Shown here one piece after another: positions 11,202 to 38,276 of a stretch of 64,000 bases of DNA. The DNA comes from Pseudisothecium myosuroides. Taxonomy: Eukaryota > Streptophyta > Bryopsida > Hypnales > Lembophyllaceae. The notes under the pieces are model-generated. The model worked only from the letters and a program-made list of their open reading frames with translations, had not been told where the DNA came from and ran no database searches. Positions within the stretch are counted from its first letter, which is position 1; each line of letters starts with the position of its first letter. A program made the translations under genes and the position numbers. The stretch is taken from the NCBI GenBank assembly GCA_951799445.1, contig OX637293.1, forward strand, positions 11,470,001 to 11,534,000, written 5' to 3'.

Positions 11202-11357
11202 CTGCAAAATGGCCGGCAAACAGTCCGGGCGCACAGTTAAAGCCAGAGGACCTTCTTGACAGCAATGGACATGGAGAAGACATGATAAGAGACTTACATG
11301 ACGGACACAATGGACACAAGCACAAATGCATGAATGGGAAGGAAGAAGGATGCTTAC

Positions 11358-12196: not shown

Positions 12197-12612
12197 CTGC
12201 ACAGACAAAGGAACCCAACGTGAAGAGCTGTTCTTTGGAGAAGGTGTGCAATACAAGCTTGCTGGGGCCAATAGAAGCTCGTCAACACAAGGACGCTTTC
12301 ACCCCACCAGCTTAGGGACATCACCAACTCATTCAGCGCCAACAAGACAATGCCTGAACCCGCAAAACAAATAGAAATCGTGTAGACAAACATTGCCCTA
12401 TGATCAAGGCCCACCAGATTCCACAAAACATACAGCATGGCGGCCTCCTGGACTTTCAAAAATTTCATGAAGCCCACGCGCGATGAAAGTGACGGATCCC
12501 TAAAACCCTAATCCTTCAGCGAGAAAGCGTTCTGGCGAATTACCTGCCCCACGCGACTCTCCCTTCGATTGCTGGCGAACATGGTTACAAGCAAGTGCTA
12601 AATTCATCATAC

Positions 12613-15190: not shown

Positions 15191-15688
15191 TAAGGCCATA
15201 TTCGTTAAATTGAGACAAAATGGTCATTTTGAGACTTTGAAATGAAGGGTGCCAAGCTCCATTGCCTTAGTAGAGTTCGAACCAAAGATAAATAGAACAT
15301 GTCCAAGACCGAGGATAGAAGTTTTCAAGTGCATTTCCCTTTCTGATTTGGAAAGAGCGAGCATGAATGCATGAACACATAAAAACAAGATAAAAAATCC
15401 TTCACACTACGTGCCACGTACTCCACAAATAGAAAAGAGAGTGAATTTACAGTCAATAACCTCAACAGTCTGAGTACAAAAAGAGTGTGTAAGTCTTGCT
15501 CACAAAGTCATGTGCACTCAATGAATTATAAATGCTGAATTCCTAAGATCTTTGTAGAAACGAAGAGGCTTACTGTACATGAAGCACTCTACTTTTCTAA
15601 GTCATATTTTTGTATGTTTTTATTTACCATGCTATTTATAGTAAGAGAGACTCGGAGGCCAAGGGCTTTTGAAACTGTTCACTGTGGC
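15191..15688. other. Non-coding stretch downstream of the ParB-like gene
   Basis: No ORF, repeat or RNA gene recognised. It probably holds the 3' UTR of the minus-strand gene ending at 15689. Confidence 0.4.
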
Positions 15689-16600
15689 CTAAGTTTCGCT
15701 ATTCGCTTTACAATTGCTTTTGGCTGCCTCCAATGCTTTCTGCTTATCGCGGGCTCTGAAGATATCCTCGCGCCGAGAGGGATATTGTGTATACCGATAG
15801 TCCGGCAAACCTCCGAAGTCGGCACTGTGAGATCCACTGTCCTTAGACTTCCTCTTCCCAGTGCTTCCCGAAACCTCGGAGGTCAAAGCAGATTTAAACC
15901 CTCGAGGAGGCGGCCTCGGCAGCGTACTATCCACATTGTTTATGTACGAACGTCCAGATCCGGTTGACTTTGAGTCCAAAGACCGTCGATGGTCTCGACG
16001 ATACCTCTGACTATGTATACTGTCGGCAGAGGGCAAGCGCCTCACGCCCACTGACAACGACGGGCGAGACTGATTATCCTCGGGGCGAAGAAACCGAGGC
16101 GACGCCGACGGACCGAGATGTGCCGACCTGCGCTGCCCCCCTAAGGCAGACGCTGCCTCCCTGCCACTCATATAAACGGCCCGACGTGCGGGCTGGGCCG
16201 GAACATCATCTTCGAGACGAGGATCAGCCACAGGTGCGCGAAGCGGGAGATCCAGTTTCCGGTTTGTTCCCGGTTCCACCCGCGGCGTTGGCGAAAAAGA
16301 TCCTCCTCGAGCCGAAGAGACTGGTTTCAACGGGGACGGCGAGCAGATTGGAGTGCGAGGCGGTCCTCGACTCGGGGGGCTATCCACGACGCCGTCCTCT
16401 ACATTGCCTTTTGAGAAGTCGACGGCCATGGAGGCAGCGTCGTCAGCGGTGCGCATCAAGTACGGTCCCGTATCTACAGACGGCCTGGTACTCCCCTTCG
16501 TAGATTCGGAGGTCACAGAAAGAGATTTCACCGATCCGGAAAGCAGGCTCCTTGTCAATCTTTGCCTTTCTGGTGGTTCAACGACAAGATCCCCTCCAAC
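15689..16600 (-). CDS. Exon 5: disordered Ser/Pro/Arg-rich C-terminal tail
   Basis: From acceptor TTTTCTTCTACAG the frame is open for 303 codons to a stop. It starts VGGDLVVEPPERQRLTRSLL and is rich in Ser, Pro and Arg throughout, with no recognisable domain. Repeated short strings PRLEDD, LRPEDN and SRREDI coincide exactly with copies of the 21-bp palindrome in the DNA (16206, 16074, 15762), all read in the same frame. The exon may belong to the upstream FCP1-like exon (phase-0 junction) or be a separate ORF. Confidence 0.5.
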   Translation of the reverse strand, partial: VGGDLVVEPPERQRLTRSLLSGSVKSLSVTSESTKGSTRPSVDTGPYLMRTADDAASMAVDFSKGNVEDGVVDSPPSRGPPRTPICSPSPLKPVSSARGGSFSPTPRVEPGTNRKLDLPLRAPVADPRLEDDVPAQPARRAVYMSGREAASALGGQRRSAHLGPSASPRFLRPEDNQSRPSLSVGVRRLPSADSIHSQRYRRDHRRSLDSKSTGSGRSYINNVDSTLPRPPPRGFKSALTSEVSGSTGKRKSKDSGSHSADFGGLPDYRYTQYPSRREDIFRARDKQKALEAAKSNCKANSET

Positions 16601-19600
16601 CTGTAGAAGAAAACCTTAAGGACTCACGTAGGAATAGTCTTCTATTAAAGGGCAACGGAATGCAGCACAAACACGAAGATAAGAAGCAGAGAAAACCGGC
16701 ATGAGAATTTCAGAAACACACAACAAGAATTATGATTTCAACTCCGAGCTTCATATATTATTTACAAATGAACAATATACACATAGAGTACCAAAAAAAT
16801 ACAATCCCAGTCCAAGCGGGTGCCCACAACAACATCTAGGTCCTATCCCGGGCTCTCTCTACGACTACATTCATGCCGGGCAGCTTGAATCGCGAGCCCA
16901 AGTTCTTCGCCGACTCTTGCATTCCTGCCAATATATGCCTAATGCTAACGTCCGACGCTGTAAGCGGCCTCGAGCCTATCCGGTGGGAATCCACGTACGC
17001 ACGCAATTGCCCCTTCTGACAATCTGAATCTAAACGCCGTAGCCAGGGAAGGAGGTTTGCCATGAGGTAGTCATCCTCCCGCTGGTCGTGATTCCAGGCC
17101 TTCAGGAAAATCGCGTTCCCGGTCTCATTACAAAGACTCTTCTCCGGCGTATCGTCTATGAGAAGAGTGTTATCCCTAGTGAACGTCGCCCCCTCCCCAC
17201 GCCCGTCAAAGAACTGCTCCGAGAGCACCTTCAACATGACTTGCTTGTGGCCCGCGGAGAGGAACTTCCCACGAGACAACTCAATCTTCCTGCAATGTGC
17301 TTGCCCTAAGATATCGTATGGGATTTTTGAACCCCTAAATATGTGGTCTGCGATGGGTTCCGCATTTGATTTGACCATCGAAGTCCAGACCACGACCCTA
17401 CTAGCGATCCGAAACACGTGTTGCAGGAATTCTTGCACGTTCGGCCGAGCGAACACCGCTTTGGGCCCAATTATTGTGGGAACTTCGTGGCATAGAACAT
17501 TGTCTTCGATCTGGTAGTGCTTCGACTTGAAGCTCTTGCCCTTGTGAACGGTATGACAGAGGACGCCGTTCAAGTCGAAGACAATGTTCATCCACTTTCG
17601 CGGGCGATCAGGCACTACAGGCGGGACATTCCGCGGCACAACCTCTCTCCGCTCCTCCGACCCTACCTGCTAAAAGCAAGACAACATAGAAATGGAGTTA
17701 CCTGTTTGAATGCAGAATCAGGCGAGCCAGACAACGGGTACGAGCATTGAATTCCACTAATCGATGGCTTGCTCCCGTTAGAAATTGTTTTCATTGCCAG
17801 TGGGCTGTGCAAACTTTTAAGAGTTGTGGGCTGAGAAAACAAAACATGGACAAAAGAATACAATTAGGCGGAGATGTATGAAATCGCAAAACGTGTATTA
17901 TATTTACAATGAGGACACAATACATTTGCAGAATGGCGCTCTCACATCAAGTGAAATAATATTACATGCGAAGTCTCACACTACACTACTCTCCGCAAAT
18001 CGCAGTCAGACAGTGTCCGTCAGCGTTGCACAATCAAGGGGTGATCTCGCCCTCCTGCCAAGAAGAATGAACACAAAATAAGTGTTGCATTGGAGGACGA
18101 AAGTGGCAAGGACAAACCACATGGGATTTCACGGACTCACACGATGTCATACGGGTTTGTAGAGGGTACCTCTACTGTTTTCCCCTGATGTCGCCCTTCA
18201 CCTTCCGCTGGAATATCCTGCGTAGCGTTTCCCTCTACCTCCTCCGGCACATTGTCATCTAAGTGGATCTCATCATCTCCGTAGTCCAATAACTGCTCCT
18301 CCACATTATGGTGAGGAACCGCGGCGTCACTGTCTTGCGCGGACGCTGGACAAGGAGGGAGATTTTCACGTGTAGGACAAGCCTCCACTCCCGCCAAAGG
18401 AGCACGGCGGGACGTTTCTGGAGGTGCACCAGAGGGAAGTGATTTATCTTCGCCCCGAGGATGAACCCTTCGCCCTGATCGTGGTGCCTTGGCAGCAGGC
18501 AAGGCACGAGTCTCCGGGACTACAACTTCCACTGCCGTCTGAACTTCAGGCCCCGAGATCTGTAGTTGGGAGGCAGGGGTGGAGGCAACGCAGTCTTCGG
18601 TGGGGAGAGGATCCTTTGAGACCGTATCCTCGCCTCGAGGATCCGTCAGACTGGTGACCAGATTCTGCACATTGTGTACCAGACCAGGTGCAGAGGCCGA
18701 GGGCAATGGTAAAGGTTGCGAGATAGTGAGTCCAACAACAGGTGCCGACTGCGTCGAACTCAAAATGGGATCGGCACGCTCAAAAAATGCCTTCATCTGT
18801 GCTTCCAACCTGTCGCACCTCTCCTGCGTTACCTTATTGCTCGCGTGGGCTTCAGCGATCAACCTGTCCTTTCTCGCCATCTCCTCCGCCAGCGCCTTCT
18901 TCCTCTCAGCCCTCCGCTCCTTTCGTTCGTCCACTTTGGTCCAGAACTGCTGTTCCAGTTTCACAGCGACTTTGGGAGAAACACCTACGAAGGTTGGCGC
19001 AACTGGAACAAGTGTTTCGTCGTCACTGTCCTTGTCGTCGTCGTCAGAGGATCGGGGATGCGCGTCCGTGTCGTACTCACTACAATTGATTTGATCACTG
19101 GGAATGTCTTCTCGAGTGATTACGGACTTCATCTTACGCGACTGCTTCAGAGGCACGGCTTCTTCGGATCCCGAAGAACCATTATCAGAGTCCTGTCTGT
19201 CATCACGTCTCTCCCGCAGTTGTGCCTGACGGCGGATTTCATCGAACTCTGTATCGGTCTCGATGTCCTCACCCACAGCGTCCGAAGGATCCTCTGCCCT
19301 TCGAGGAAGAGCCTCCCAACGCTCCATGTCCATGGCATTGCTGCCGTACTCATCTATCCCCTCCAATCCTTTTGCTGATTGTCTCCTAGGTTGGGCTGCC
19401 ACGAGGCCCGCTTCACCTTCATCTGACCCTTCTCGTCCGGGTGACTTAGGCGAGACAAGATTCTTAGCTAATGGGGGGGATACTGATGTGAGGAGCGGCG
19501 GCTCCAGATACAGAGGCCGAAGGTAATTTGCGGAGTAAATGGAATTTGAAAACATGAAGTCGTTCATGTCCATTGTCTCGGCGAAAGTTGCAACGTATCG

Positions 19601-22600
19601 CAACTTTGCTGTGAATTCTGGGTCACACAGACCATAAAAAAACGCTCCAAACATCTGCAAGACGATGGGAAAGACAAAATTTAGATCACAAAATCATAAT
19701 TCTTTACCCTCGACCCGAAGATAAGAGAGTCCACAGAAAGGAATAAACGGTAGCCCCTAAATAATAAAACCAGAGAGGGAGAAATTATCCTCGACCCGAA
19801 GATAAACACACCTTCGCTGCAAGAGTGCACTTTGAACCTGTATAGATCCCAAGAACGTTCTCATCAGGCTTGGCGAAACACTGAAGAAGCTCCAAATAGA
19901 ATTCCATTCTGAGTTCGCTCGAGTAGACCCTCCACTTTGCTTCATTATTCTTGTATGGGTCCTTGTAGTACAGATTATCACCAGCCAAATACTCTGGCTT
20001 AAATCTCTCACGGACGGAATTAGCGTGGGCGCTTCGCCTCTTAAAAAGAAAAACAAGTGGCACTGGTGCCATGTTCCCCCGCGTCGTGGAGTTATACAGA
20101 CGCTCGCCCTTACAGGGAACGTATATGGACTGCAAACAGTCGTACTGCTGCAACTTAGAAGCAACGAACGTTGCAGCTACTTTCACGTCGTCTTCTCCCC
20201 GAAGAATCCAGACCCAGACGTGAGCTTCCGTCGCTGCCGGCCGCAGCTGCGTAGCCATGAAAGTCAAAAACGGTTCCAGCTCAAGCACTTGTTTCGGGAG
20301 AAGAGGCTTTAGCGTCTCCCGGACGTCGAGTATTGCCAAGTTCAGATTTCGCTCCTGGTACTGATAGTGGTCACTCGTTACTATTGCCCTCGCCACCACA
20401 TCTAGGCCAGTCAACGACACTTGTCCTGAAGGCTCTGCAAGTCGATACTTACACTTCATAAACCTCTGGAACATCGTCAATTCGTCTTTAAACTTCTCTC
20501 CCATGGCTTTGGCCTTTCTTAGCTTTGCCTCGTTTGTCAGCCGTTTTACAAAGAAAGACGGCTTCGGGTTGGCAATAAGAAAGTCCCATGTCGAAGAGGT
20601 AAAAAGGTGGCGTTTCTTCCACGATCTCCACTTGTCATCCACAACATCCCCTTGAGAGTCTCGGAACTGTAGAGCAGGCTTAATGTCCATCAGTTCGTCT
20701 ATGACAACTTTTTTCTTCTTTCTCCGCTCCGCCCAGGACTCCACGTTATGGTTATCTTGCACCAAATATTTTGGTTTGTGCACAGAAACCTTTGGGTAGT
20801 CACACACACGACCCGGCGTCTTGTTCAGCAGGTGCATCGCAAGCCTCCCAAAGTCGTGGTCTGTGAAATGCCCCAAACGCTTGAAGAACTCCTTCTTCAA
20901 GGTAAAGTTACTGGATTTAAAAAATTTGCCCTCGTTGTACTTCTCGAAAGTGATCGGATCGATCAGCTCTCCCTCGCTGTGCTTCATGAGAAATTCCTTC
21001 CAGTGCTTCCAAAGACCGTCACGCAAAGTGATAATTTTGATCTCGATCTTCAAGTCACTAGCTCCCTTCACTGATTTGCCTTCATTTTCCGGATTAATGC
21101 TCTTAAAACGCTTGACGACGTGGTCAGTGAAAAGCTGCACATCCAAAAGAAAGTTAGGATACATGATCCTCGAACCGAGGATAACAGTTCACTAAAACCA
21201 CACAACCGTTGCTTAACTAATCCTTCTGAAAAATCACGCATCCGACTACGCAATTGATCTATTATCATCGGGTCGAGGATAACTGTGAGGATCTAGGGCG
21301 TACAGCATATTGGCGATCATTGTGCACTGAGCCGTTCCTCCGATTAACCGGGTCCTCCGGAGCATTCGTTGGTCGCAATCGGTGAATCCATACGTTTCGC
21401 AATCCAAGCATTTGATTTCCCCATGTCGGTTGTTCGTACACAATATGGTTCGTGACATTGTAAAAATCCGAGATCTCCACAAGCTTTGCAGCATCTAGCG
21501 TCCACACGATCACGGCGTCCCAGGTTTGCAACTCCTCCTTCCGTTTTGCGCCGCATCCCGCAATTTGGTATTCCTTCGAGACGGCAATACTGTGTTGTCC
21601 ATTTATTATCATGAACTTGCCATCCTTTATATCCTTCCAATCTTTGGGAGGTGACTTCAATAGCTCATTATTCTCGTCCACGGGGGTGAGGCAAAGGTGC
21701 TGCCTTTGTGTAGGGTCACCAAGATTCAGAAGCACTTTCCTGACACCCTTTAAAACTCTCTCCTCAATCCCACGAATTATATATTCGTCCTTCGCAGGAA
21801 TACATTTGAAAATAGACACTGGAAACGGTGCCAGTCCGAGGACGTAGCAGGATTTGTGGTTATCCCAGAAGTTTTTTTGTAATTTCTCGAACTTGTCCGC
21901 TTCCGCCACGGGCATTTCCTCTTCGGGTGGTGTAGGTTCCACCGTGGTCAAGGCTGACCCAGAACTCCCAATTGTCGAAAGGGTTCCAGCAGCAGCTCGT
22001 TTCCGGGGTTTCTTCGGGGCAGCTTCTTTGCTAACCGCTGCAGTTACGCTCCGCTTCCGTGAATCTAGACGGTCGTTCCGCTGATCACTTCCCTCCCCCG
22101 TGACGCTTCGCCGACGGGAATCTGACCTCGCATTTCCTTGGCCACTTCTGCCGCTGGCAGACACTCCTGCTGCAGATTGGCTACGATCTGGAGCGACTGA
22201 CGGATTCTTCTTTGTCTTCTTCTTTAGGCCGACGGTGGGAATTTTATTGACGTGCTTGTGAGCATATCGGTCTAATGACACCCAGATTGCGTTCAGTCTT
22301 CTCGAGGTAATCTTCGCAGTGCTGTCTTGCCAGGGGACGTACTTCGCGTCTTCGAACTCTCGAATTAGATGCTGAGTTCTTGAATCGTCGAGTGCTGCGA
22401 CAAGAGCGTTCATGTCGAACTTCTGTTTGTTCTTGGCAATGTCTACAATGATGGAGTGACTGTGCTTCCCCTGTATTCCGTCTTCTTTCACCTCACGAAG
22501 TACTATAACATAGTAGTTTGCCTGAGCTGCTTCAATCACAGTGATTTTTTCCTTCGTATTCAAGGCGAAGAAATTTGTCTTGTCCTTTACTCGGTAGCGG

Positions 22601-22785
22601 AGATAGACGTACTCCTGGAACCGAGAGATACCGAATGTCCAAGCCTCGACATGGTCTTTGAATTTCCATAGCATTCCGTAGGATTCGTCGAGATCCTCGC
22701 TAACTGGTTTCTCACCAACGGGTTCGACAAACGGCTCAAGGAATGGCTCCACCATCGAATAGTCGTACCCATCTGCTGAGTCCAT
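15689..22785 (-). CDS. Five-exon gene: ParB-like + DNA-methyltransferase-like + linker + FCP1-like protein, about 2000 aa
   Basis: Minus-strand exons are 22785 to about 21304-21348, 21134-19812, 19654-18143, 17666-16869 and 16600-15689. Every exon is open throughout, and all introns can be placed in phase 0, giving one protein of roughly 2,000 residues. Domain order: unknown N-terminal domain, basic linker, ParB/Srx-like domain, permuted N4/N6-methyltransferase-like domain spanning the exon 2/3 junction, acidic disordered and coiled-coil region, FCP1/HAD-like domain, disordered tail. ParB-domain plus DNA-methylase fusions are known from phages and bacteria; an FCP1-like addition in a plant is not something I recognise. 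The gene is surrounded and penetrated by a repeated 21-bp palindrome. I infer a transposon-borne or virus-derived DNA-binding protein. Less likely it is two or three separate genes; the exon 1 donor and the links to exons 4 and 5 are the weakest points. Confidence 0.55.
15762..16226. repeat. Three palindrome copies inside exon 5
   Basis: Copies at 16206-16226 (TCATCTTCG-AGA-CGAGGATCA), 16074-16094 (left half perfect, right half CGAAGAAAC) and 15762-15782 (left half ATATCCTCG, right half with an extra base pair). All are read as R-x-E-D in the same frame. Confidence 0.6.
16869..17666 (-). CDS. Exon 4: FCP1/HAD-like phosphatase domain
   Basis: The acceptor TTGCTTTTAGCAG opens VGSEERREVVPRN, then KWMNIVFDLNGVLCHTV (HAD motif I at about 31-35: D present, second D replaced by N), VFARPNVQEFLQHVF, RVVVWTSM (motif II region, 91-97), and DNTLLIDDTPEKSL (acidic pair DD, 171-172). 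This is the FCP1/NIF/TIM50-type HAD fold that dephosphorylates Ser/Thr, as in the RNA polymerase II CTD. The nucleophile Asp is kept but the general acid/base Asp is Asn, so activity is doubtful. The probable donor is AAT|GTAGTC at 16868. It is better preserved than the FCP1-like domain at 8521-10120 and clearly a different sequence. Confidence 0.65.
17667..18142 (-). other. Putative intron 3
   Basis: Between a candidate donor ATC|GTGTGAG and acceptor TTTTAGCAG, both phase 0. AT-rich with no long ORF. It holds none of the 21-bp palindromes, unlike introns 1 and 2. Confidence 0.45.
18143..19654 (-). CDS. Exon 3: end of methyltransferase-like fold, acidic disordered region and coiled coil
   Basis: It starts at acceptor CTTGCAG|ATG and is open for 504 codons. 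Residues 1-55 (MFGAFFYGLCDPEFTAKLRY and on) continue the methyltransferase-like fold from exon 2. Residues 60-220 are acidic and disordered, ending in a run of Asp. Residues 232-292 form a strongly charged coiled coil (KVDERKERRAERKKALAEEM), followed by a Pro/Ser/Ala-rich tail. HPRGEDK and DPRGEDT mark two palindrome copies in the DNA (18444 and 18624). The end near PYDI is defined by a weak donor or by the TGA at 18137-18139. Confidence 0.6.
18444..18644. repeat. Two palindrome copies inside exon 3
   Basis: Copies at 18444-18464 (TTATCTTCG-CCC-CGAGGATGA) and 18624-18644 (GTATCCTCG-CCT-CGAGGATCC). They are 180 bp apart and in the same reading frame, encoding PRGED both times. Confidence 0.75.
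19655..19811 (-). other. Intron 2 (157 bp) carrying two palindromes
   Basis: The donor AAG|GTGTGT and acceptor CTTGCAG give a phase-0 join CTLAAK|MFGAFF. The intron contains palindrome copies at 19785-19805 and 19704-19724. The first begins 6 nt inside the donor end of the intron. Confidence 0.65.
19704..19805. repeat. Two palindrome copies in intron 2
   Basis: Copies at 19704-19724 (TTACCCTCG-ACC-CGAAGATAA) and 19785-19805 (TTATCCTCG-ACC-CGAAGATAA). They differ at one base and share the ACC spacer and the AAG variant, suggesting local duplication. Confidence 0.85.
19812..21134 (-). CDS. Exon 2: permuted N4/N6 DNA-methyltransferase-like domain, catalytic motifs altered
   Basis: It is 1323 nt, exactly 441 codons, from acceptor TTGGATGTGCAG. 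Residues 1-230 are Lys-rich and unrecognised. From about 260 it follows the order of beta-type DNA amino-methyltransferases: a strand ending NLNLAILDVRE where DPPY (motif IV) is expected (residues 270-273 DVRE), VWVWIL, a variable region, a strand PLVFLFKRRS, then a helix LELLQCF and KPDENVLGIYTGSKCT (about 423-437), where the cofactor motif I (DPFxGSGTT) is expected. Both key motifs are degenerate, so it is probably a non-catalytic DNA-binding fold. Prokaryotic relatives often follow a ParB-like domain, as here. The assignment rests on pattern and order, not on a search. Confidence 0.5.
21135..21303 (-). other. Intron 1, with two palindromes; donor not fixed
   Basis: The acceptor TTTCTTTTGGATGTGCAG at 21135 is strong. 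The donor must be phase 0 and lies at one of three weak sites: GCT|GTACGC (exon end 21304), TCA|GTGCAC (21328) or CCG|GTTAAT (21349). The intron holds palindromes at 21164-21184 and 21262-21282. Confidence 0.5.
21164..21282. repeat. Two palindrome copies in intron 1
   Basis: Copies at 21164-21184 (TGATCCTCG-AAC-CGAGGATAA) and 21262-21282 (TTATCATCG-GGT-CGAGGATAA), each one base from a perfect dyad in the left arm. Confidence 0.85.
21304..22785 (-). CDS. Exon 1: N-terminal domain, basic linker and ParB/Srx-like domain
   Basis: It starts at ATG 22785 (MDSADGYDYSMVEPF). Residues 35-180 form an unrecognised, probably folded domain. Residues 187-265 are a basic, Ser-rich linker with several K/R clusters (KKPRKR at 258-263) that would serve for nuclear import. 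Residues 317-445 resemble the ParB N-terminal/sulfiredoxin-like fold: PFPVSIFKCIP (strand and Ile-rich start), a helix ending GVRKVLLNLG, the signature KFMIINGQHSIAVSKEY (the DGxHR-type loop, here ING-Q-H-S at 394-399), a strand VIVWTL, and FYNVTNH. In ParB this loop binds nucleotide (CTP) and contacts partner DNA-bound subunits. The Arg of GxHR is Ser here. A possible 5' UTR intron acceptor (TGTGAACAG) lies 13 nt before the ATG. Confidence 0.6.
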
Positions 22786-24200
22786 ATTGGGACTATCTGT
22801 TCACAGCAACCATGAAGTTAGGCTTCAATACAATTATCCTCGGCTCGAGGATAAGGAGCATAATTGTTGTTAGCATAACTTATACTTCAGACGCTTAGAA
22901 TTTACAGAACTTTGTTAAATGTGCCTAATAAGCTTATTAGAGAAGCTTCGACCTAGAAGTAAGTGTTGTAGTCTAGTCAGAGTACCATTTATCTCCGGTC
23001 CGAGGATACGGGTTTTGTTCTACGTTTTCCAAGGTTAAGTACTGCGCAACGGATCCTCGTCTTCTAAAGCATAGTCCTCTGATCTGTGATTAGCTACACA
23101 TATTATTTAAGAGATATGATTTAGGCTACGTACTATTCTCTAATACCTTTTCTATAATGCTTTTAGGAATTAATTATCCTCGCCTCGATGATAACTTTGC
23201 TGGCATCTATGCCCTTCAACTTGGGTTCTCAACTCCTCTCTACGGTTCTTTTAAGAATGAACATGTGGGCGTACGTAATATGGAGTGACTTACTTCGTTA
23301 CATTTTCTAACCTATTTTCAGTTACAGCCCGGCTGTCATCTTGAGTTGGCATTCGATTTAGGCTCTCCTCTAGAGACGGAGAGTTATCTTCGCCTCGAGG
23401 ATATCTCTATGTGCAGGTGTGTAGGAGTCCCCTCGTCAGATTATGGGTTCTGTCTATTGAAGTTCTGAGTTTCTGATGATTATCTCCGGGTCGAGGATAA
23501 TCTTATGGTTTGGGGAGGTAATGTGGCGAGGAATTTCAGACACTAATTTTTATTCCTCCAGGAATAAGTTTTGTATGAAGGGTTTCCGTGCTACTTTTAT
23601 TCTGTCTGGGATCCTTGCCCGGGTTAATTCTTATTAGTAATTATCAATAGCAGTGGTAGTGCTCTTGTTTATCCTCGGGCCGAGGATAACTGAACGCTGA
23701 CTGAGTTTTCGGGATTTTTACCAAAGCTTACCGTATATTCGTTATGATACTCAGTTATCTTCGCCTCGGAGATGCTCGCTGTTCTCCTACATTACTATTC
23801 TTCCGGGCTTAAACCCTAATATTTCTGTTTTTTCTGATCAGAACTTTGATTATGGTTGATGCACATGATTCGGGCGCCTCTAACGTAATTCCACTATACA
23901 AGAATGCAAACCGCGTATACAGAGTCGGAGTACAGCGACCAAAATGGGTTTACCGGTTGCCTAAACTCTAAACCCTAAAACAGTGAAGGAAACTATGAAT
24001 GCATACCACATACTAATTTCACACTGAGAAACGCAATTCTTCTACAAAATGTATACTGACATTAACTTACAGAGTAACGTGATCGTTGCCTGCTCAAATT
24101 ACACAATCCCAAACACTTGAAAGGCTTCGCTTATCCCTGCAAAAAATGGATCCGTCAGTACTTAATCATTCCAAGAAATAGTCACACGAACAAATCATTA
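22786..24200. promoter_or_regulatory. 5' region of the ParB-like gene with palindromes and two teloboxes
   Basis: No ORF of note. Apart from the palindrome set there are telobox motifs AAACCCTAA at 23811-23819 and TAAACCCTAAAA at 23969-23980. Teloboxes occur near transcription starts of many plant genes, so the promoter may lie at about 23800-24000, with the palindromes then in a leader or 5' UTR intron. Inferred. Confidence 0.4.
22834..23775. repeat. Seven palindrome copies in the 5' flank of the ParB-like gene
   Basis: Copies start at 22834, 22989, 23174, 23384, 23480, 23669 and 23755; consensus TTATCYTCG-N3-CGAGGATAA. Those at 22834 (spacer GCT) and 23669 (spacer GGC) are perfect 9-bp dyads; the last is degenerate on the right. 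Spacings are 155, 185, 210, 96, 189 and 86 bp. The sequence between copies is unrelated, so this is a dispersed motif and not a tandem repeat or CRISPR. The first copy lies about 50 bp before the gene's ATG. Confidence 0.9.
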
Positions 24201-24219
24201 ATAGACTAAGATATCGTAA

Positions 24220-24500
24220 ACACACAAATACAGAATTAACAAAAGCACGGAATGAACACAAAGACGCACAGACAAAGAGATCAAAATCAAACAAACATGC
24301 AGACACACACAGCGCAAGGTGACACACGAAGCGCACAGACACTCACAGCTGACAGACACAGACAGCGCACAAACACAGAACACACAACACACACAACACA
24401 CACAACGCACAACACTCACAACACTCACAAACACACAACATACACAATGCACAAACACATAACGCACAAAAACACAACACAAAAAACGGACAGACAAACA
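24220..24500. repeat. CA/ACA-rich low-complexity tract
   Basis: Dense CACA, ACAACAC and CACTCACAA runs with no fixed period. Reading frames through it give only Cys/Val-rich (minus) or His/Thr-rich (plus) low-complexity peptides. Confidence 0.85.
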
Positions 24501-25005
24501 ACGCACCAGAGGATTCGACGCAGGGCTCCACCGAACGGCTCCCACTCCGACGCCGCTGGCGTCGACCTCCGACACTGCAGCAACCTAGACCTCACACACT
24601 CCAAGGTCAGCTTCTCCGGCGCTGCAAGCTGGAACGCCGGCGTTGTGATGAAGAACGACGAAGCAAAGAGGAAGAAGACCAGCGCGTGACAACAGCGGCG
24701 ACAACGCAGGAGAGAACAGCGGCGACGAAGAAGAGCAGGAGAAAAAAAGAAGCGAGAGGAGCCGTGCTGCAGGAGAGAGATGACCTCCCATGGCAAAGCC
24801 GAGCCGCCAAATCGCAACCCGAAGCTCCCACGAACCTAAGTCCCTTGCCGAACCTCCCGACCCAGATCCAGCTCCCTTGCCGAACCTCACCCGAACCCAA
24901 AACCAACCGAACCAAACCCTGAGCCTACCTTAAGCCTGACGAAGCTGAAACCCAACCTAAACCCGAACCCAACAAAAAATTAGCCCAACCAAGAGAATCC
25001 CTAAA
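24501..25005. other. GC-richer stretch of unknown nature
   Basis: More GC-rich than its surroundings, with purine-rich runs (GAAGAAGAGCAGGAG) and, from 24840, repeated CCGAACC/AACCCGAAC-like words. Several overlapping frames stay open only because of composition. No domain or splice structure was recognised. Confidence 0.4.
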
Positions 25006-25845
25006 ACCAAGCCTACTAGTGTAGCCCTGTGCCGTTGCCACACCCAAAACAAAAATAAAAGTCATTTTAAAGACCAGAAATAACTCAAAAGACCATAACT
25101 TTTCCACCGGAGGTTCAAATGCCATGAAACCAAGCCCATGCACCCCTCCTCGCCTAGAGCTTTCCAACGATACCAAGAACGCGACAAAAATTGAAGGAGA
25201 AATAATTTCTAGTGTAGCCCTGTGCCGTTGCCACAACCAAAACAAAAGTAAAAGTCATTTTTAAAACAAAAAATAACTCGAAATCCTAGAACTTTCCCAC
25301 TATAGTTCGAAACCCCCCCAAACGAAGTCTGTGTACCCCTCCTTGCCAGCTTCCCAACGGTACCAAGAACATGACAAATTGACACACGATTGAAAAGGTA
25401 CATAATTTAGCATAATTTAATAATTTTTCAAATCCCCAAAAAACTCAAAAATCCATAATTTTTCCACCGTCAGTCCAAACGCCATGAAACAAAGCTAGGG
25501 CACCCCTCCTCGCCCAGTGCTTTCGAACCGTACCAAAAAAGTGACAAATTGACTCACGGTTCAAAAGATACATGATTTACTAATTTTTAAGATCCAAAAA
25601 TAACTCAAGAAATCCATTACTTTTTCACCGTACATGCAAATGCTACGAAACCAAGCCTCTCCACCCCTCCTCGCCGAGAGCTTTCCCATGGTACGAAGAG
25701 CGCAACCAAAATCAAAATAAAAGTAATTTCCTAATTTTCTGACCCATAAATACTTCGAAATTCAATAACTTCCGCACCTGAACTCCAAACACAACGAAAC
25801 CAAGCCCGTGCACCCCTCCCAATCGAGGAGATCGAGGGCTTATTG
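25005..25845. repeat. Decaying tandem repeat, about five copies, 150-195 bp period
   Basis: The landmark CACCCCTCCTCGCC recurs at 25141, 25334, 25501, 25662 and 25811 (periods 193, 167, 161, 149), with ATGAAACCAAGCCC before it and GAGCTTTCC and a TACCAAGAACG-like block after it. A second landmark, AGTGTAGCCCTGTGCCGTTG, occurs at about 25018 and 25211. Copies are strongly diverged; non-coding. Confidence 0.75.
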
Positions 25846-25847
25846 TA

Positions 25848-26030
25848 CAAGAATACACTATTTCTAAATTAGATATTGTTGTAATTGAGAGTAATGAACC
25901 TCCATGTGTACAAATGAAACTATTTCCAGAAAGATTTGTTCACTGTAATGCTTTAGAAAATAACTTTCAAGTTTAGATGGCAACATAATGCAACAGGCAA
26001 GTGAACGTAATTTTCCTATTTCGCGTAGTA
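25848..26030. mobile_element. Diverged MITE copy related to the element at 4559-4806
   Basis: It shares TTGTTGTAATTG, ATGAACCTCCATGTGTACAA and GATTTGTTCA-type blocks in the same order as 4665-4735. Terminal inverted repeats are no longer clear. Further related AT-rich blocks with CAAGAGTGCACTACTTTTGA follow at 26095-26195. Confidence 0.5.
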
Positions 26031-26220
26031 GAATTACAAGCCCCATACTTAGTTCTTAACATTTTACAAATAAACTTAAATGTTTATTCTTATCGAATAA
26101 GAGTGCACTTCTTTTGACTAGAAGTTTAAGAAAATTAAGCCCTAATATTTATTCTTATTGTACAAGAGTGCACTACTTTTGACTAAAATTTTAGGAAAAT
26201 TGCGACTCAGGTCTGAACAA

Positions 26221-26382
26221 ATAAGGTAAACTACGCCATTATGGACAAAATGGGAGCAAGCCCGTTGCGGACCAAATTATAATAGTGGTGTACATTTCAG
26301 AACTTGAATGTACACCACCATTATAATTTTGCCCACAATGGGCTTGCTCCCATTCTGCCCATAATGGGATAGTTTACCTTAT
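26221..26382. mobile_element. 160-bp foldback element (near-perfect hairpin)
   Basis: Two arms of about 75 bp, 26221-26296 and 26308-26382, are inverted copies with only a few mismatches (for example GTAAACTA, GGGAGCAAGCCC, ATTATAAT, GTGGTGTACATT). The loop is about 11 nt. The ends read ATAAGGTAAAC. This is a MITE or foldback transposon. Confidence 0.85.
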
Positions 26383-26690
26383 GTTAAAGCTCTGAAGCCA
26401 ATAGGTACTCTACAACCATGGTTTGTTCCAAAGCTAAGGATTAGCACAAAATGAAACCTAAACAAAATAAATTCTGCACTGAAACAAAATTTTAACAACT
26501 ACATTACAAACTAGAGACTATGGAAATCATCCCTCAGTATAAATATTGTGAAAACTCTTGGCTTTAACAAATGCAAAAGCAATCATTTAAGGACCTACTA
26601 CTACTTTCAAAAACAGCATACTGGCACTTAATGTTTTGCAAGATATTTTTTTTCGAAGATAATTAAAATATAGGGTTTAAGGTTGAAATA
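26383..26690. other. AT-rich spacer before the satellite
   Basis: No gene, repeat unit or RNA gene recognised. Confidence 0.4.
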
Positions 26691-27501
26691 TCAAACATCA
26701 AAGAAGGATCAAATCAAATTAAAAATTCTGAACTCAAAATGTCATGAAATTTAATGGCGTTTGGAGTGGATAAATTGTTGTAGAAGTTGTAAATGTTCCC
26801 AACATTTACATTCCCCTAGTGTATGAAAATTGTGCCCCATTTACAATCTTTTATTACGTGAAAGAAAAAAAACAAGAACTAGCCATGCCTCTTAAACACT
26901 ACAATTCAACACGAGATGTCATCAAATTCAATAGCGATTGCAAGAGGAAAAAAATGTACAAATCGTTTATAGTACCCACATAGAGATTCCTTGTGGGTAT
27001 TAAAATAATTCATGACCCATAGCTTTTAATTCTCCTCCGTGAAACCAAGAAAAGAAAACAATTAGGCACGCCCCATAGTTAATAAAACTACACTCCAAAT
27101 GTCATGGAATTTAATGTCGTTTGGAGGTAAAAAAACAATGTAGAAGTTCTAAAAAAAATACAACAAATACATTCCCCAAATAAATTAAATTTGTGCCCCA
27201 TTTACAATCTTCTACTACGTGAAGGAAAAAAACACAAGAATCAACCATGCCTCCTAGCACTCAACCAGCGATGTCTACATTCCCCAAGTGCATTAAATTT
27301 GTGCCCCATTTACATTCATTTACTACGTGAAGGAAAAAACTCAAGAACCAGGCATGCCTCGTAATTAGTGGAATTCAACCCGGGATGTCATGAAATTCAA
27401 TAGCGATTGGAAGAGGAAAAAAATGTACAAGTTGTACGTAATCTCCACATGGAGATTGCATGTGGGCATTAAATTCACATCGTAATTTGATGCATGAAAT
27501 T
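26690..27501 (-). repeat. Inverted, diverged edge of the satellite array
   Basis: These sequences are the reverse complement of the satellite unit that follows. Equivalent points (ATGTCATGAAATTTAATGGC at 26738 and its counterpart at 27098) are 360 bp apart. Divergence increases leftward: 27330-27501 is nearly identical to the main array, 26690-27230 is clearly mutated, and a deletion joins two units near 27276. The mutated units carry the type B segment (ending near CCCATAGCTTTTAATTC). Confidence 0.85.
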
Positions 27502-30500
27502 CAGTGCGCAAACTACAGGGCGTGCCTAATTATTTTCTTTTCTTGGTTTTGCGGAGCAAAATTAAAAGAAATGGGTCCTAAATTTAATGCCCACATGCAA
27601 TCTCCATGTGGGGATTGTGTACAACTTGTACATTTTTTTCCTCTTCCAATCGCTATTGAATTTCATGACATCCCGGGTTGAATTCTACTAATTACGAGGC
27701 ATGCCTGGTTCTTGATTTTTTTCCTTCACGTAGTAAATGAATGTAAATGGGGCACAAATTTAATGCACTTGGGGAATGTACATGTTGAGAACATTTACAA
27801 CTTGTACGATATTTTTTTATCCTCCAATTGCCAACTAATTCCATGACATTTGGTGTGCGAGTCCGCAAACTACAGGGCGTGCCTAATTATTTTCTTTTCT
27901 TGGTTTTGACGGAAGAATTTTATGCATCAAATTACGATGTGAATTTAATGCCCACATGCAATCTCCATGTGGAGATTACGTACAACTTGTACATTTTTTT
28001 CCTCTTCCAATCGCTATTGAATTTCATGACATCCCGGGTTGAATTCTACTAATTACGAGGCATGCCTGGTTCTCGATTTTTTTCCTTCACGTAGTAAATG
28101 AATGTAAATGGGGCACAAATTTAATGCACTTGGGGAATGTACATGTTGAGAACATTTACAACTTGTACGATATTTTTTTATCCTCCAATTGCCAACTAAT
28201 TCCATGACATTTGGTGTGCGAGTCCGCAAACTACAGGGCGTGCCTAATTATTTTCTTTTCTTGGTTTTGACGGAAGAATTTTATGCATCAAATTACGATG
28301 TGAATTTAATGCCCACATGCAATCTCCATGTGGAGATTACGTACAACTTGTACATTTTTTTCCTCTTCCAATCGCTATTGAATTTCATGACATCCCGGGT
28401 TGAATTCTACTAATTACGAGGCATGCCTGGTTCTTGATTTTTTTCCTTCACGTAGTAAATGAATATAAATGGGGCACAAATTTAATGCACTTGGGGAATG
28501 TACATGTTGAGAACATTTACAACTTGTACGATATTTTTTTATCCTCCAATTGCCAACTAATTCCATGACATTTGGTGTGCGAGTCCGCAAACTACAGGGC
28601 GTGCCTAATTATTTTCTTTTCTTGGTTTTGACGGAAGAATTTTATGCATCAAATTACGATGTGAATTTAATGCCCACATGCAATCTCCATGTGGGGATTG
28701 TGTACAACTTGTACATTTTTTTCCTCTTCCAATCGCTATTGAATTTCATGACATCCCGGGTTGAATTCTACTAATTACGAGGCATGCCTGGTTCTCGATT
28801 TTTTTCCTTCACGTAGTAAATGAATGTAAATGGGGCACAAATTTAATGCACTTGGGGAATGTACATGTTGAGAACATTTACAACTTGTACGATATTTTTT
28901 TATCCTCCAATTGCCAACTAATTCCATGACATTTGGTGTGCGAGTCCGCAAACTACAGGGCGTGCCTAATTATTTTCTTTTCTTGGTTTTGACGGAAGAA
29001 TTTTATGCATCAAATTACGATGTGAATTTAATGCCCACATGCAATCTCCATGTGGGGATTGTGTACAATTTGTACATTTTTTTCCTCTTCCAATCGCTAT
29101 TGAATTTCATGACATCCCGGGTTGAATTCTACTAATTACGAGGCATGCCTGGTTCTCGATTTTTTTCCTTCACGTAGTAAATGAATATAAATGGGGCACA
29201 AATTTAATGCACTTGGGGAATGTACATGTTGAGAACATTTACAACTTGTACGATATTTTTTTATCCTCCAATTGCCAACTAATTCCATGACATTTGGTGT
29301 GCGAGTCCGCAAACTACAGGGCGTGCCTAATTATTTTCTTTTCTTGGTTTTGACGGAAGAATTTTATGCATCAAATTACGATGTGAATTTAATGCCCACA
29401 TGCAATCTCCATGTGGGGATTGTGTACAACTTGTACATTTTTTTCCTCTTCCAATCGCTATTGAATTTCATGACATCCCGGGTTGAATTCTACTAATTAC
29501 GAGGCATGCCTGGTTCTTGATTTTTTTCCTTCACGTAGTAAATGAATATAAATGGGGCACAAATTTAATGCACTTGGGGAATGTACATGTTGAGAACATT
29601 TACAACTTGTACGATATTTTTTTATCCTCCAATTGCCAACTAATTCCATGACATTTGGTGTGCGAGTCCGCAAACTACAGGGCGTGCCTAATTATTTTCT
29701 TTTCTTGGTTTTGACGGAAGAATTTTATGCATCAAATTACGATGTGAATTTAATGCCCACATGCAATCTCCATGTGGGGATTGTGTACAACTTGTACATT
29801 TTTTTCCTCTTCCAATCGCTATTGAATTTCATGACATCCCGGGTTGAATTCTACTAATTACGAGGCATGCCTGGTTCTTGATTTTTTTCCTTCACGTAGT
29901 AAATGAATGTAAATGGGGCACAAATTTAATGCACTTGGGGAATGTACATGTTGAGAACATTTACAACTTGTACGATATTTTTTTATCCTCCAATTGCCAA
30001 CTAATTCCATGACATTTGGTGTGCGAGTCCGCAAACTACAGGGCGTGCCTAATTATTTTCTTTTCTTGGTTTTGACGGAAGAATTTTATGCATCAAATTA
30101 CGATGTGAATTTAATGCCCACATGCAATCTCCATGTGGAGATTACGTACAACTTGTACATTTTTTTCCTCTTCCAATCGCTATTGAATTTCATGACATCC
30201 CGGGTTGAATTCTACTAATTACGAGGCATGCCTGGTTCTCGATTTTTTTCCTTCACGTAGTAAATGAATGTAAATGGGGCACAAATTTAATGCACTTGGG
30301 GAATGTACATGTTGAGAACATTTACAACTTGTACGATATTTTTTTATCCTCCAATTGCCAACTAATTCCATGACATTTGGTGTGCGAGTCCGCAAACTAC
30401 AGGGCGTGCCTAATTATTTTCTTTTCTTGGTTTTGACGGAAGAATTTTATGCATCAAATTACGATGTGAATTTAATGCCCACATGCAATCTCCATGTGGA

Positions 30501-31090
30501 GATTACGTACAACTTGTACATTTTTTTCCTCTTCCAATCGCTATTGAATTTCATGACATCCCGGGTTGAATTCTACTAATTACGAGGCATGCCTGGTTCT
30601 CGATTTTTTTCCTTCACGTAGTAAATGAATATAAATGGGGCACAAATTTAATGCACTTGGGGAATGTACATGTTGAGAACATTTACAACTTGTACGATAT
30701 TTTTTTATCCTCCAATTGCCAACTAATTCCATGACATTTGGTGTGCGAGTCCGCAAACTACAGGGCGTGCCTAATTATTTTCTTTTCTTGGTTTTGACGG
30801 AAGAATTTTATGCATCAAATTACGATGTGAATTTAATGCCCACATGCAATCTCCATGTGGGGATTGTGTACAACTTGTACATTTTTTTCCTCTTCCAATC
30901 GCTATTGAATTTCATGACATCCCGGGTTGAATTCTACTAATTACGAGGCATGCCTGGTTCTCGATTTTTTTCCTTCACGTAGTAAATGAATGTAAATGGG
31001 GCACAAATTTAATGCACTTGGGGAATGTACATGTTGAGAACATTTACAACTTGTACGATATTTTTTTATCCTCCAATTGCCAACTAATTC

Positions 31091-31447
31091 CATGACATTT
31101 GGTGTGCGAGTCCGCAAACTACAGGGCGTGCCTAATTATTTTCTTTTCTTGGTTTTGCGGAGCAAAATTAAAAGAAATGGGTCCTAAATTTAATGCCCAC
31201 ATGCAATCTCCATGTGGGGATTGTGTACAATTTGTACATTTTTTTCCTCTTCCAATCGCTATTGAATTTCATGACATCCCGGGTTGAATTCTACTAATTA
31301 CGAGGCATGCCTGGTTCTTGATTTTTTTCCTTCACGTAGTAAATGAATATAAATGGGGCACAAATTTAATGCACTTGGGGAATGTACATGTTGAGAACAT
31401 TTACAACTTGTACGATATTTTTTTATCCTCCAATTGCCAACTAATTC
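31091..31447 (+). repeat. Example of a type B satellite unit (357 bp)
   Basis: In type B, monomer 2 has GCGGAGCAAAATTAAAAG and on to GGTCCTAAATTTAATG in place of the type A segment GACGGAAGAATTTTATGC and on to GATGTGAATTTAATG. The B segment resembles monomer 1 more (AAATGGG..C..AAATTTAATG), and B-like sequence is present in the old inverted edge, so B is likely ancestral. Confidence 0.85.
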
Positions 31448-34400
31448 CATGACATTTGGTGTGCGAGTCCGCAAACTACAGGGCGTGCCTAATTATTTTC
31501 TTTTCTTGGTTTTGCGGAGCAAAATTAAAAGAAATGGGTCCTAAATTTAATGCCCACATGCAATCTCCATGTGGGGATTGTGTACAATTTGTACATTTTT
31601 TTCCTCTTCCAATCGCTATTGAATTTCATGACATCCCGGGTTGAATTCTACTAATTACGAGGCATGCCTGGTTCTTGATTTTTTTCCTTCACGTAGTAAA
31701 TGAATATAAATGGGGCACAAATTTAATGCACTTGGGGAATGTACATGTTGAGAACATTTACAACTTGTACGATATTTTTTTATCCTCCAATTGCCAACTA
31801 ATTCCATGACATTTGGTGTGCGAGTCCGCAAACTACAGGGCGTGCCTAATTATTTTCTTTTCTTGGTTTTGACGGAAGAATTTTATGCATCAAATTACGA
31901 TGTGAATTTAATGCCCACATGCAATCTCCATGTGGGGATTGTGTACAACTTGTACATTTTTTTCCTCTTCCAATCGCTATTGAATTTCATGACATCCCGG
32001 GTTGAATTCTACTAATTACGAGGCATGCCTGGTTCTCGATTTTTTTCCTTCACGTAGTAAATGAATGTAAATGGGGCACAAATTTAATGCACTTGGGGAA
32101 TGTACATGTTGAGAACATTTACAACTTGTACGATATTTTTTTATCCTCCAATTGCCAACTAATTCCATGACATTTGGTGTGCGAGTCCGCAAACTACAGG
32201 GCGTGCCTAATTATTTTCTTTTCTTGGTTTTGCGGAGCAAAATTAAAAGAAATGGGTCCTAAATTTAATGCCCACATGCAATCTCCATGTGGGGATTGTG
32301 TACAATTTGTACATTTTTTTCCTCTTCCAATCGCTATTGAATTTCATGACATCCCGGGTTGAATTCTACTAATTACGAGGCATGCCTGGTTCTTGATTTT
32401 TTTCCTTCACGTAGTAAATGAATATAAATGGGGCACAAATTTAATGCACTTGGGGAATGTACATGTTGAGAACATTTACAACTTGTACGATATTTTTTTA
32501 TCCTCCAATTGCCAACTAATTCCATGACATTTGGTGTGCGAGTCCGCAAACTACAGGGCGTGCCTAATTATTTTCTTTTCTTGGTTTTGACGGAAGAATT
32601 TTATGCATCAAATTACGATGTGAATTTAATGCCCACATGCAATCTCCATGTGGGGATTGTGTACAATTTGTACATTTTTTTCCTCTTCCAATCGCTATTG
32701 AATTTCATGACATCCCGGGTTGAATTCTACTAATTACGAGGCATGCCTGGTTCTTGATTTTTTTCCTTCACGTAGTAAATGAATATAAATGGGGCACAAA
32801 TTTAATGCACTTGGGGAATGTACATGTTGAGAACATTTACAACTTGTACGATATTTTTTTATCCTCCAATTGCCAACTAATTCCATGACATTTGGTGTGC
32901 GAGTCCGCAAACTACAGGGCGTGCCTAATTATTTTCTTTTCTTGGTTTTGACGGAAGAATTTTATGCATCAAATTACGATGTGAATTTAATGCCCACATG
33001 CAATCTCCATGTGGAGATTCGTACAACTTGTACATTTTTTTCCTCTTCCAAGCGCTATTGAATTTCATGACATCCCGGGTTGAATTCTACTAATTACGAG
33101 GCATGCCTGGTTCTCGATTTTTTTCCTTCACGTAGTAAATGAATATAAATGGGGCACAAATTTAATGCACTTGGGGAATGTACATGTTGAGAACATTTAC
33201 AACTTGTACGATATTTTTTTATCCTCCAATTGCCAACTAATTCCATGACATTTGGTGTGCGAGTCCGCAAACTACAGGGCGTGCCTAATTATTTTCTTTT
33301 CTTGGTTTTGCGGAGCAAAATTAAAAGAAATGGGTCCTAAATTTAATGCCCACATGCAATCTCCATGTGGGGATTGTGTACAACTTGTACATTTTTTTCC
33401 TCTTCCAATCGCTATTGAATTTCATGACATCCCGGGTTGAATTCTACTAATTACGAGGCATGCCTGGTTCTCGATTTTTTTCCTTCACGTAGTAAATGAA
33501 TATAAATGGGGCCCAATTTTAATGCACTTGGGGAATGTACATGTTGAGAACATTTACAACTTGTACGATATTTTTTTATCCTCCAATTGCCAACTAATTC
33601 CATGACATTTGGTGTGCGAGTCCGCAAACTACAGGGCGTGCCTAATTATTTTCTTTTCTTGGTTTTGACGGAAGAATTTTATGCATCAAATTACGATGTG
33701 AATTTAATGCCCACATGCAATCTCCATGTGGGGATTGTGTACAACTTGTACATTTTTTTCCTCTTCCAATCGCTATTGAATTTCATGACATCCCGGGTTG
33801 AATTCTACTAATTACGAGGCATGCCTGGTTCTCGATTTTTTTCCTTCACGTAGTAAATGAATGTAAATGGGGCACAAATTTAATGCACTTGGGGAATGTA
33901 CATGTTGAGAACATTTACAACTTGTACGATATTTTTTTATCCTCCAATTGCCAACTAATTCCATGACATTTGGTGTGCGAGTCCGCAAACTACAGGGCGT
34001 GCCTAATTATTTTCTTTTCTTGGTTTTGCGGAGCAAAATTAAAAGAAATGGGTCCTAAATTTAATGCCCACATGCAATCTCCATGTGGGGATTGTGTACA
34101 ATTTGTACATTTTTTTCCTCTTCCAATCGCTATTGAATTTCATGACATCCCGGGTTGAATTCTACTAATTACGAGGCATGCCTGGTTCTCGATTTTTTTC
34201 CTTCACGTAGTAAATGAATATAAATGGGGCCCAATTTTAATGCACTTGGGGAATGTACATGTTGAGAACATTTACAACTTGTACGATATTTTTTTATCCT
34301 CCAATTGCCAACTAATTCCATGACATTTGGTGTGCGAGTCCGCAAACTACAGGGCGTGCCTAATTATTTTCTTTTCTTGGTTTTGACGGAAGAATTTTAT

Positions 34401-36836: not shown

Positions 36837-38276
36837 CATGACATTTGGTGTGCGAGTCCGCAAACTACAGGGCGTGCCTAATTATTTTCTTTTCTTGGTT
36901 TTGACGGAAGAATTTTATGCATCAAATTACGATGTGAATTTAATGCCCACATGCAATCTCCATGTGGAGATTCGTACAACTTGTACATTTTTTTCCTCTT
37001 CCAAGCGCTATTGAATTTCATGACATCCCGGGTTGAATTCTACTAATTACGAGGCATGCCTGGTTCTCGATTTTTTTCCTTCACGTAGTAAATGAATATA
37101 AATGGGGCACAAATTTAATGCACTTGGGGAATGTACATGTTGAGAACATTTACAACTTGTACGATATTTTTTTATCCTCCAATTGCCAACTAATTCCATG
37201 ACATTTGGTGTGCGAGTCCGCAAACTACAGGGCGTGCCTAATTATTTTCTTTTCTTGGTTTTGACGGAAGAATTTTATGCATCAAATTACGATGTGAATT
37301 TAATGCCCACATGCAATCTCCATGTGGAGATTCGTACAACTTGTACATTTTTTTCCTCTTCCAAGCGCTATTGAATTTCATGACATCCCGGGTTGAATTC
37401 TACTAATTACGAGGCATGCCTGGTTCTCGATTTTTTTCCTTCACGTAGTAAATGAATATAAATGGGGCACAAATTTAATGCACTTGGGGAATGTACATGT
37501 TGAGAACATTTACAACTTGTACGATATTTTTTTATCCTCCAATTGCCAACTAATTCCATGACATTTGGTGTGCGAGTCCGCAAACTACAGGGCGTGCCTA
37601 ATTATTTTCTTTTCTTGGTTTTGACGGAAGAATTTTATGCATCAAATTACGATGTGAATTTAATGCCCACATGCAATCTCCATGTGGAGATTCGTACAAC
37701 TTGTACATTTTTTTCCTCTTCCAAGCGCTATTGAATTTCATGACATCCCGGGTTGAATTCTACTAATTACGAGGCATGCCTGGTTCTCGATTTTTTTCCT
37801 TCACGTAGTAAATGAATATAAATGGGGCACAAATTTAATGCACTTGGGGAATGTACATGTTGAGAACATTTACAACTTGTACGATATTTTTTTATCCTCC
37901 AATTGCCAACTAATTCCATGACATTTGGTGTGCGAGTCCGCAAACTACAGGGCGTGCCTAATTATTTTCTTTTCTTGGTTTTGACGGAAGAATTTTATGC
38001 ATCAAATTACGATGTGAATTTAATGCCCACATGCAATCTCCATGTGGAGATTCGTACAACTTGTACATTTTTTTCCTCTTCCAAGCGCTATTGAATTTCA
38101 TGACATCCCGGGTTGAATTCTACTAATTACGAGGCATGCCTGGTTCTCGATTTTTTTCCTTCACGTAGTAAATGAATATAAATGGGGCACAAATTTAATG
38201 CACTTGGGGAATGTACATGTTGAGAACATTTACAACTTGTACGATATTTTTTTATCCTCCAATTGCCAACTAATTC
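36837..38276 (+). repeat. Run of four identical-type C units (360 bp each)
   Basis: Units starting 36837, 37197, 37557 and 37917 all have GAGATTCGTAC (one base lost) and CCAAGCGC instead of CCAATCGC. Isolated C units occur at 32884 and 35398. The run marks a recent local amplification. Confidence 0.85.

What the first reader, a model, noticed from the sequence alone, without database searches (positions are those of the whole stretch)
15762..23775. A 21-bp palindrome repeated at least 16 times around and inside the ParB-like gene
TTATCYTCG-N3-CGAGGATAA copies occur at 22834, 22989, 23174, 23384, 23480, 23669, 23755, 21262, 21164, 19785, 19704, 18624, 18444, 16206, 16074 and 15762. Arms are conserved while the spacer and the DNA between copies vary, as for a bound operator. 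ParB proteins bind palindromic parS sites, and VANDAL-type plant transposons carry dispersed motifs bound by their own protein. The encoded protein may bind these sites for silencing escape, copy control or segregation.
Basis: partly seen in the sequence, partly recalled or inferred. Interest (0 to 1): 0.88.

Follow-up and report, generated by a model that had tools for sequence, protein, structure and literature searches.

The report
Giant moss transposon's self-recognition sites
A repeated 21-letter mirror-image DNA word sits at both gene control regions of a 63,000-letter moss jumping gene that also encodes a ParB-like, methyltransferase-like protein, and the word varies between element families along with that protein, as expected if the element recognises its own DNA.

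Summary
The palindrome is real: 14 sites at up to 3 mismatches in the window, 0.09 expected. They belong to a 63,202-bp transposon (window 15192 to 14.4 kb past the window end) with inverted terminal repeats and a CTTT target duplication. It carries a transposase (DUF7869) and, on the other strand, a gene with a ParB N-domain, a probably dead beta-class DNA methyltransferase fold and an NIF phosphatase. Nine more sites lie upstream of the transposase. The window's 361-bp satellite lies inside the element.

Of 87 exon-1 matches in the genome I looked at 38; 37 have such sites, also where the DNA between sites no longer aligns. Motif letters 4-6 differ between gene subfamilies while the core stays. 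Divergent metagenome relatives often keep a site just after the exon end.

Best reading: the element's own protein binds these sites and controls both genes, working like Arabidopsis VANC/VANDAL anti-silencing but with an unrelated protein. Binding and effect are untested; 13 of 47 perfect sites remain unplaced. Segregation is unlikely. Novelty: new variant of a known kind.

The parts
15192..64000 (.). part of the 63,202-bp transposon inside the window (C7:11485192-11548393; it continues 14,393 bp past the window; C7:11534001-11540000 was not read)
   Evidence: terminal repeats at both ends and CTTT on both outer sides; both repeats found again in the genome scan
15192..15218 (+). terminal inverted repeat AAGGCCATATTCGTTAAATTGAGACAA, one mismatch to the repeat of element A; outer flank ends in CTTT
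21304..22785 (-). exon 1: N-terminal beta domain and ParB N-domain (protein residues about 319-450, NGQHS motif)
   Evidence: exon end inferred from where homologues diverge and a GT donor
19812..21134 (-). exon 2: helical part plus beta-class DNA methyltransferase fold with lost catalytic motifs
   Evidence: splice ends inferred
18137..19654 (-). exon 3: low-complexity and coiled region
   Evidence: open frame; dN/dS 0.33 against element A
16836..17639 (-). exon 4: NIF/FCP1-like phosphatase domain
   Evidence: PF03031 8.9e-16; joining to the same transcript is inferred
15689..16558 (-). exon 5: disordered region
   Evidence: open frame; joining inferred
16074..16094 (.). palindrome site, in exon 5
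16206..16226 (.). palindrome site, in exon 5
18444..18464 (.). palindrome site, in exon 3
18624..18644 (.). palindrome site, in exon 3
19704..19724 (.). palindrome site, in intron 2
19785..19805 (.). palindrome site, in intron 2, just after the inferred donor
21164..21184 (.). palindrome site, in intron 1 near the inferred acceptor
21262..21282 (.). palindrome site, in intron 1 near the inferred donor
22834..22854 (.). palindrome site, upstream array
22989..23009 (.). palindrome site, upstream array
23174..23194 (.). palindrome site, upstream array
23384..23404 (.). palindrome site, upstream array
23480..23500 (.). palindrome site, upstream array
23669..23689 (.). palindrome site, upstream array
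23755..23775 (.). weak palindrome site, upstream array
27503..64000 (.). 361-bp satellite, about 101 copies in the window, inside the transposon; satellite is seen again up to C7:11542715

Best explanation
The palindromes are the recognition sites of the transposon's own ParB/pseudo-methyltransferase protein. A dimer binds the two mirrored arms at the arrays in front of the transposase gene and of its own gene, and in its introns, and so controls expression of the element: most likely it keeps the element's control regions open against host silencing (as VANC does), possibly with negative autoregulation at high dose. Shown here: the element, the two arrays, their persistence and their variation with the gene subfamily, purifying selection on the protein. 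Inferred: that this protein is the binder, that it acts as a dimer, and the direction of the effect.
For: 14 sites in the window against 0.09 expected. In 34.5 kb around element A (C1:7510705-7531959, 21,255 bp) all 22 sites at up to 3 mismatches are inside the element: 8 at the transposase (7 upstream of its open frame, 1 at the frame's first codons), 6 upstream of the ParB gene, 4 in introns, 4 in exons. The window copy has the same plan, with 9 sites upstream of its transposase frame, five of the spacings nearly as in element A. 29 of 30 exon-1 loci (one is the window copy, up to 3 mismatches) and 8 of 8 further ones (up to 4) have sites. 25 of 47 perfect sites lie within 10 kb of an exon-1 match, 0.5 expected; for the D-type variant 42 of the 50 places listed (of 248, on three chromosomes) lie within 20 kb, 0.26 expected. 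Arm letters 4, 5, 6 differ between subfamilies (p 2e-15, 4e-7, 6e-14), letter 1 weakly (0.003), letters 2 and 3 not. Translated palindromes stand in 11 of 21 exon-1 tails and 5 of 9 exon-2 tails of metagenome relatives (27-53% identical), 0 in 22,903 body residues. dN/dS 0.10 (exon 1) and 0.06 (exon 2) between the window copy and element A.
Against: No binding data. 13 of 47 perfect sites are near neither an exon-1 match nor a listed terminal repeat; decayed copies are possible but were not checked. In the gene body the arms are no better conserved than the rest (94% and 93%), and upstream of the ParB gene only 3 of 6 sites coincide. 10 of 21 and 4 of 9 tails lack the translated palindrome, and that pattern was chosen after seeing tails. 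NGQHS lacks the arginines of the bacterial GERR motif (recalled), so CTP use is doubtful. Sites were called with the consensus, which inflates arm conservation; sites within a subfamily are not independent, so the p-values are too small.
Confidence: 0.62

Rival explanations
1. The sites are operators for repression: the protein shuts down both promoters as copies build up (copy control), not anti-silencing.
For: Sites crowd the upstream regions of both genes, including the protein's own, a usual layout of autoregulation.
Against: Sites in introns and exons, and tandem units in the D subfamily, resemble VANC targets more.
Confidence: 0.2
2. The sites serve transposition itself, as binding sites of the transposase or of a synaptic complex.
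For: In the stretch scanned around element A they occur only inside the element.
Against: They are not at the ends: the nearest is 3.5 kb from the left and about 0.9 kb from the right terminus in element A; terminal repeats are shared between subfamilies A and C while palindrome letters differ.
Confidence: 0.08
3. The palindromes work as RNA hairpins, for splicing or RNA stability.
For: Two inferred introns each hold two sites, close to donor and acceptor.
Against: On the sense strand, C-A mismatches at arm letter 6 outnumber U-G pairs 24 to 7 (summed over subfamilies, unique sites).
Confidence: 0.04
4. They are parS-like partition sites used for segregation.
For: ParB N-domain fold.
Against: The element is a chromosomal transposon; 4-bp target duplications in three copies.
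Confidence: 0.01

Closest known systems
VANC proteins and their motifs in Arabidopsis VANDAL transposons (PMC5735166, PMC10398659)
   Same: Element-encoded protein; short motifs upstream of the transposase gene and in introns; tandem units; C- and T-type variants between subfamilies
   Different: VANC has DUF1985/DUF287, its motif is 9 bases and not a palindrome, the element is Mutator-like (recalled); here a ParB N-domain plus pseudo-methyltransferase and a 21-bp palindrome, also in exons; no methylation data here
ParB plus DNA methyltransferase accessory protein of Ectocarpus Sola1-1_Ec32 (PMC12477816)
   Same: Giant element (21.5 kb), accessory gene on the strand opposite to the transposase, ParB-like and N6A/N4C methyltransferase domains
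   Different: In Ectocarpus the methyltransferase is predicted to methylate; here the motifs are lost. The passages I read name no binding sites
Bacterial ParB/KorB with palindromic sites
   Same: ParB N-domain fold; palindromic sites; KorB is a transcriptional repressor (title of 8qa9)
   Different: GERR (recalled) replaced by GQHS; no helix-turn-helix identified; eukaryotic transposon
Beta-class DNA methyltransferases (M1.HpyAVI, CcrM, M.RsrI)
   Same: Fold of exon 2 residues 247-454
   Different: DPPY absent in 22 of 22, DPFxGSGTT (recalled consensus) replaced in all 21 that reach that stretch

Membership tests
VANC/VANDAL anti-silencing system | family-specific motifs clustered in non-coding DNA of the element | tested here: met
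   but 4 of 22 sites in element A are in exons and 1 in the transposase frame
VANC/VANDAL anti-silencing system | VANC protein with DUF1985/DUF287 | tested here: not met
   no such Pfam hit in the five exons at E up to 1
VANC/VANDAL anti-silencing system | protein removes DNA methylation from its own family | not testable with these tools
   no methylation or expression data
ParB | ParB N-domain fold | tested here: met
ParB | GERR nucleotide-binding motif (recalled) | tested here: not met
   NGQHS in 22 of 22 aligned
ParB | partner ParA and partition function | not tested
   no search for ParA was made
Sola1 transposons | terminal inverted repeats and 4-bp target duplication | tested here: met
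   TAAA, ATAG and CTTT in three copies; PMC6875170 has a table row for a Sola1 element with 3270, 32 and 4, which I read as length, repeat and duplication (header not seen)
Sola1 transposons | Sola1-type transposase | tested here: inconclusive
   DUF7869 1.4e-44, relatives in Physcomitrium and Ceratodon, Physcomitrella Sola1 named in a table of PMC9033089; no Sola1 reference sequence was at hand
Active beta-class DNA methyltransferase | DPPY and glycine-rich SAM motifs | tested here: not met

The most novel reading that the evidence does not exclude
A eukaryotic transposon uses a ParB-type protein that loads at parS-like palindromes and spreads along the element, shielding tens of kilobases, including its own internal satellite, from silencing; the methyltransferase fold has become a non-catalytic reader of the site.
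Probability: 0.15. Interest if true: 0.92.

Novelty: new variant of a known kind. Interest (0 to 1): 0.74.

Why it matters
Sequence-specific self-recognition by a transposon is documented in detail for VANDAL in Arabidopsis. A second case, in a moss, built from unrelated bacterial-type domains, would show that it arose more than once. The sites make the suggested role of ParB-methyltransferase accessory proteins of giant transposons directly testable, and a protein and target that vary together are a natural experiment in DNA recognition.

Tried and rejected
Pfam by sequence found neither ParB nor methyltransferase; folds were needed. Helical phasing of site spacings: not significant at 10.5 bp (p 0.18); the smallest of eight periods tried was p 0.04 at 9.5 bp. 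RNA hairpins: see rivals. Single matches in a phage-like contig (L001) and a deltaproteobacterial contig (L002) are taken as chance. A scan of viral contigs gave no relative of exon 1. The other NIF-phosphatase frame of the window is only 22% identical to exon 4. Papers, open-licence PMC only: 0 papers hold DUF7869; 0 hold ParB, adenine methyltransferase, transposon and algae; 0 hold ParB, eukaryotic transposon and methyltransferase; only the Ectocarpus paper holds ParB, DNA methyltransferase, transposon and Chlamydomonas. Moss searches listed 3 of 3 papers and 8 of 118, one search listed 20 of 5,966; from titles and abstract starts none reports such sites.
Full report
Observation. With C/T allowed in the left arm, 14 of the 16 listed places match at up to 3 mismatches; 100 shuffles gave 0.09 on average. 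23755 is a weak 15th site; at 15762 the right arm is interrupted.

The element. The genome is 388 Mb in 222 contigs; the window is C7:11470001-11534000. Transposase relatives named in Ceratodon and Physcomitrium point to a moss; this is an inference. Two copies on C1 and C5 are 99.4% identical over 21.3 kb and then differ; their ends are inverted repeats starting AAGGCCTTATTCG, with TAAA and ATAG as 4-bp duplications. A 1000-codon frame on the other strand matches DUF7869 (1.4e-44). The window copy runs from 15192 to C7:11548393, 63,202 bp, between CTTT duplications; its transposase frame is open (980 codons stop to stop, 91.6% identical over 965 residues). Its extra length is the 361-bp satellite, read from window 27503 to the window end and again from C7:11540001 to 11542715; the 6 kb between were not read, so about 45 kb is an inference. 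The satellite is about 70% identical to short repeats of element A 4.3-5.0 kb before its exon 1; in the window it starts 4.7 kb before exon 1. Of 174 terminal-repeat matches (up to 2 mismatches) 100 were listed; they give 24 facing pairs less than 90 kb apart, 23 of which hold an exon-1 match.

The sites in the element. In element A, with 34.5 kb scanned, all 22 sites at up to 3 mismatches are inside the element: 8 at the transposase (7 upstream of the open frame, 1 at its first codons), 6 before the ParB gene, 2 in each of two introns and 2 in each of two exons (exons by homology to the window). The window copy has 15 in the window and 9 upstream of the transposase frame.

Conservation. The upstream DNA of subfamily A2 does not align with the window's beyond 22882 but still has about six sites. 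Before the transposase, 6 of 7 sites coincide in an alignment where other DNA is 58% identical, arms 77%, spacers 42% (site choice by consensus inflates the arms). Before the ParB gene only 3 of 6 coincide and identity is near background (arms 55%, rest 49%): sites turned over. In the gene body there is no difference (arms 94%, spacers 92%, rest 93%).

Variation with the protein. Sites found by the core TCG-N3-CGA alone show letters 4, 5 and 6 differing among subfamilies A-D (34, 12, 29 and 21 unique sites), letter 1 weakly, letters 2 and 3 not (sites within a subfamily are not independent, so the p-values are too small). Subfamily B has mostly C or G at letter 4, C most often G at letter 6, D mostly T at letter 6.

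Other species. A 4.2-kb contig binned with a cyanobacterium encodes the gene start with 5 sites, 4 upstream and 1 after exon 1; I take it for plant contamination. In metagenome relatives, 11 of 21 exon-1 tails and 5 of 9 exon-2 tails of at least 8 residues show a translated palindrome, none in 22,903 body residues; the pattern was chosen after seeing tails, and 13 of 43 and other proteins without a usable tail were not counted further. Three ParB relatives and three transposase relatives share contig lengths (46150, 460842, 493283, among 27 and 26 compared), which suggests linkage.

Specificity. 47 perfect A-type and 248 perfect D-type sites occur in the genome; reversed controls 0. 30 of 47 lie within 20 kb of an exon-1 match (1.0 expected); 10 of 47 lie inside the 24 paired intervals, which make up 0.18% of the genome; 13 of 47 are near neither an exon-1 match nor a listed terminal repeat. 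The exon-1 list is a lower bound (85 of 462 candidates scored).

Mechanism. The layout resembles VANDAL21, where motifs lie upstream of the transposase gene and in introns and come in C- and T-type variants (PMC5735166: outline, section 5 part 1 and section 9 read; PMC10398659: passages). The Ectocarpus Sola1 element with a ParB-methyltransferase gene opposite its transposase (PMC12477816: passages) is the nearest in design; its authors suggest binding and modifying the element's own DNA. Here modification is unlikely, so recognition alone seems to have been kept. Whether binding opens or closes the element is not decided by sequence; I favour anti-silencing by analogy.

Noticed in passing
window 27503-64000 and L054:1-2715: A 361-bp satellite of probably about 45 kb (6 kb of it not read) lies inside the transposon, apparently grown from its internal repeats; a transposon as a source of a large satellite array.
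   Followed up: partly
G000 contig C11: 23 of 87 exon-1 matches are on this 16.9-Mb contig (1.36 per Mb against 0.09-0.30 on the other ten large contigs), perhaps a sex chromosome.
   Followed up: no
window 8558-10039 (-): Another NIF-phosphatase frame outside the element (PF03031 1.1e-10), 22% identical to exon 4.
   Followed up: partly
window 11091-12251 (-): Fragment resembling plant Transposase_24 (2.2e-4, below the Pfam cut-off).
   Followed up: no
L038-L044 upstream regions: In subfamily D many sites sit in tandem units with spacings 21, 73 and 94 bp.
   Followed up: partly
inferred introns 1 and 2, window 21135-21303 and 19655-19811: Each short intron holds two palindromes near its two ends; a splicing role was not tested.
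   Followed up: no
L003: Plant-like contig in a cyanobacterial MAG (CADCWO010000074.1), probably misbinned.
   Followed up: partly
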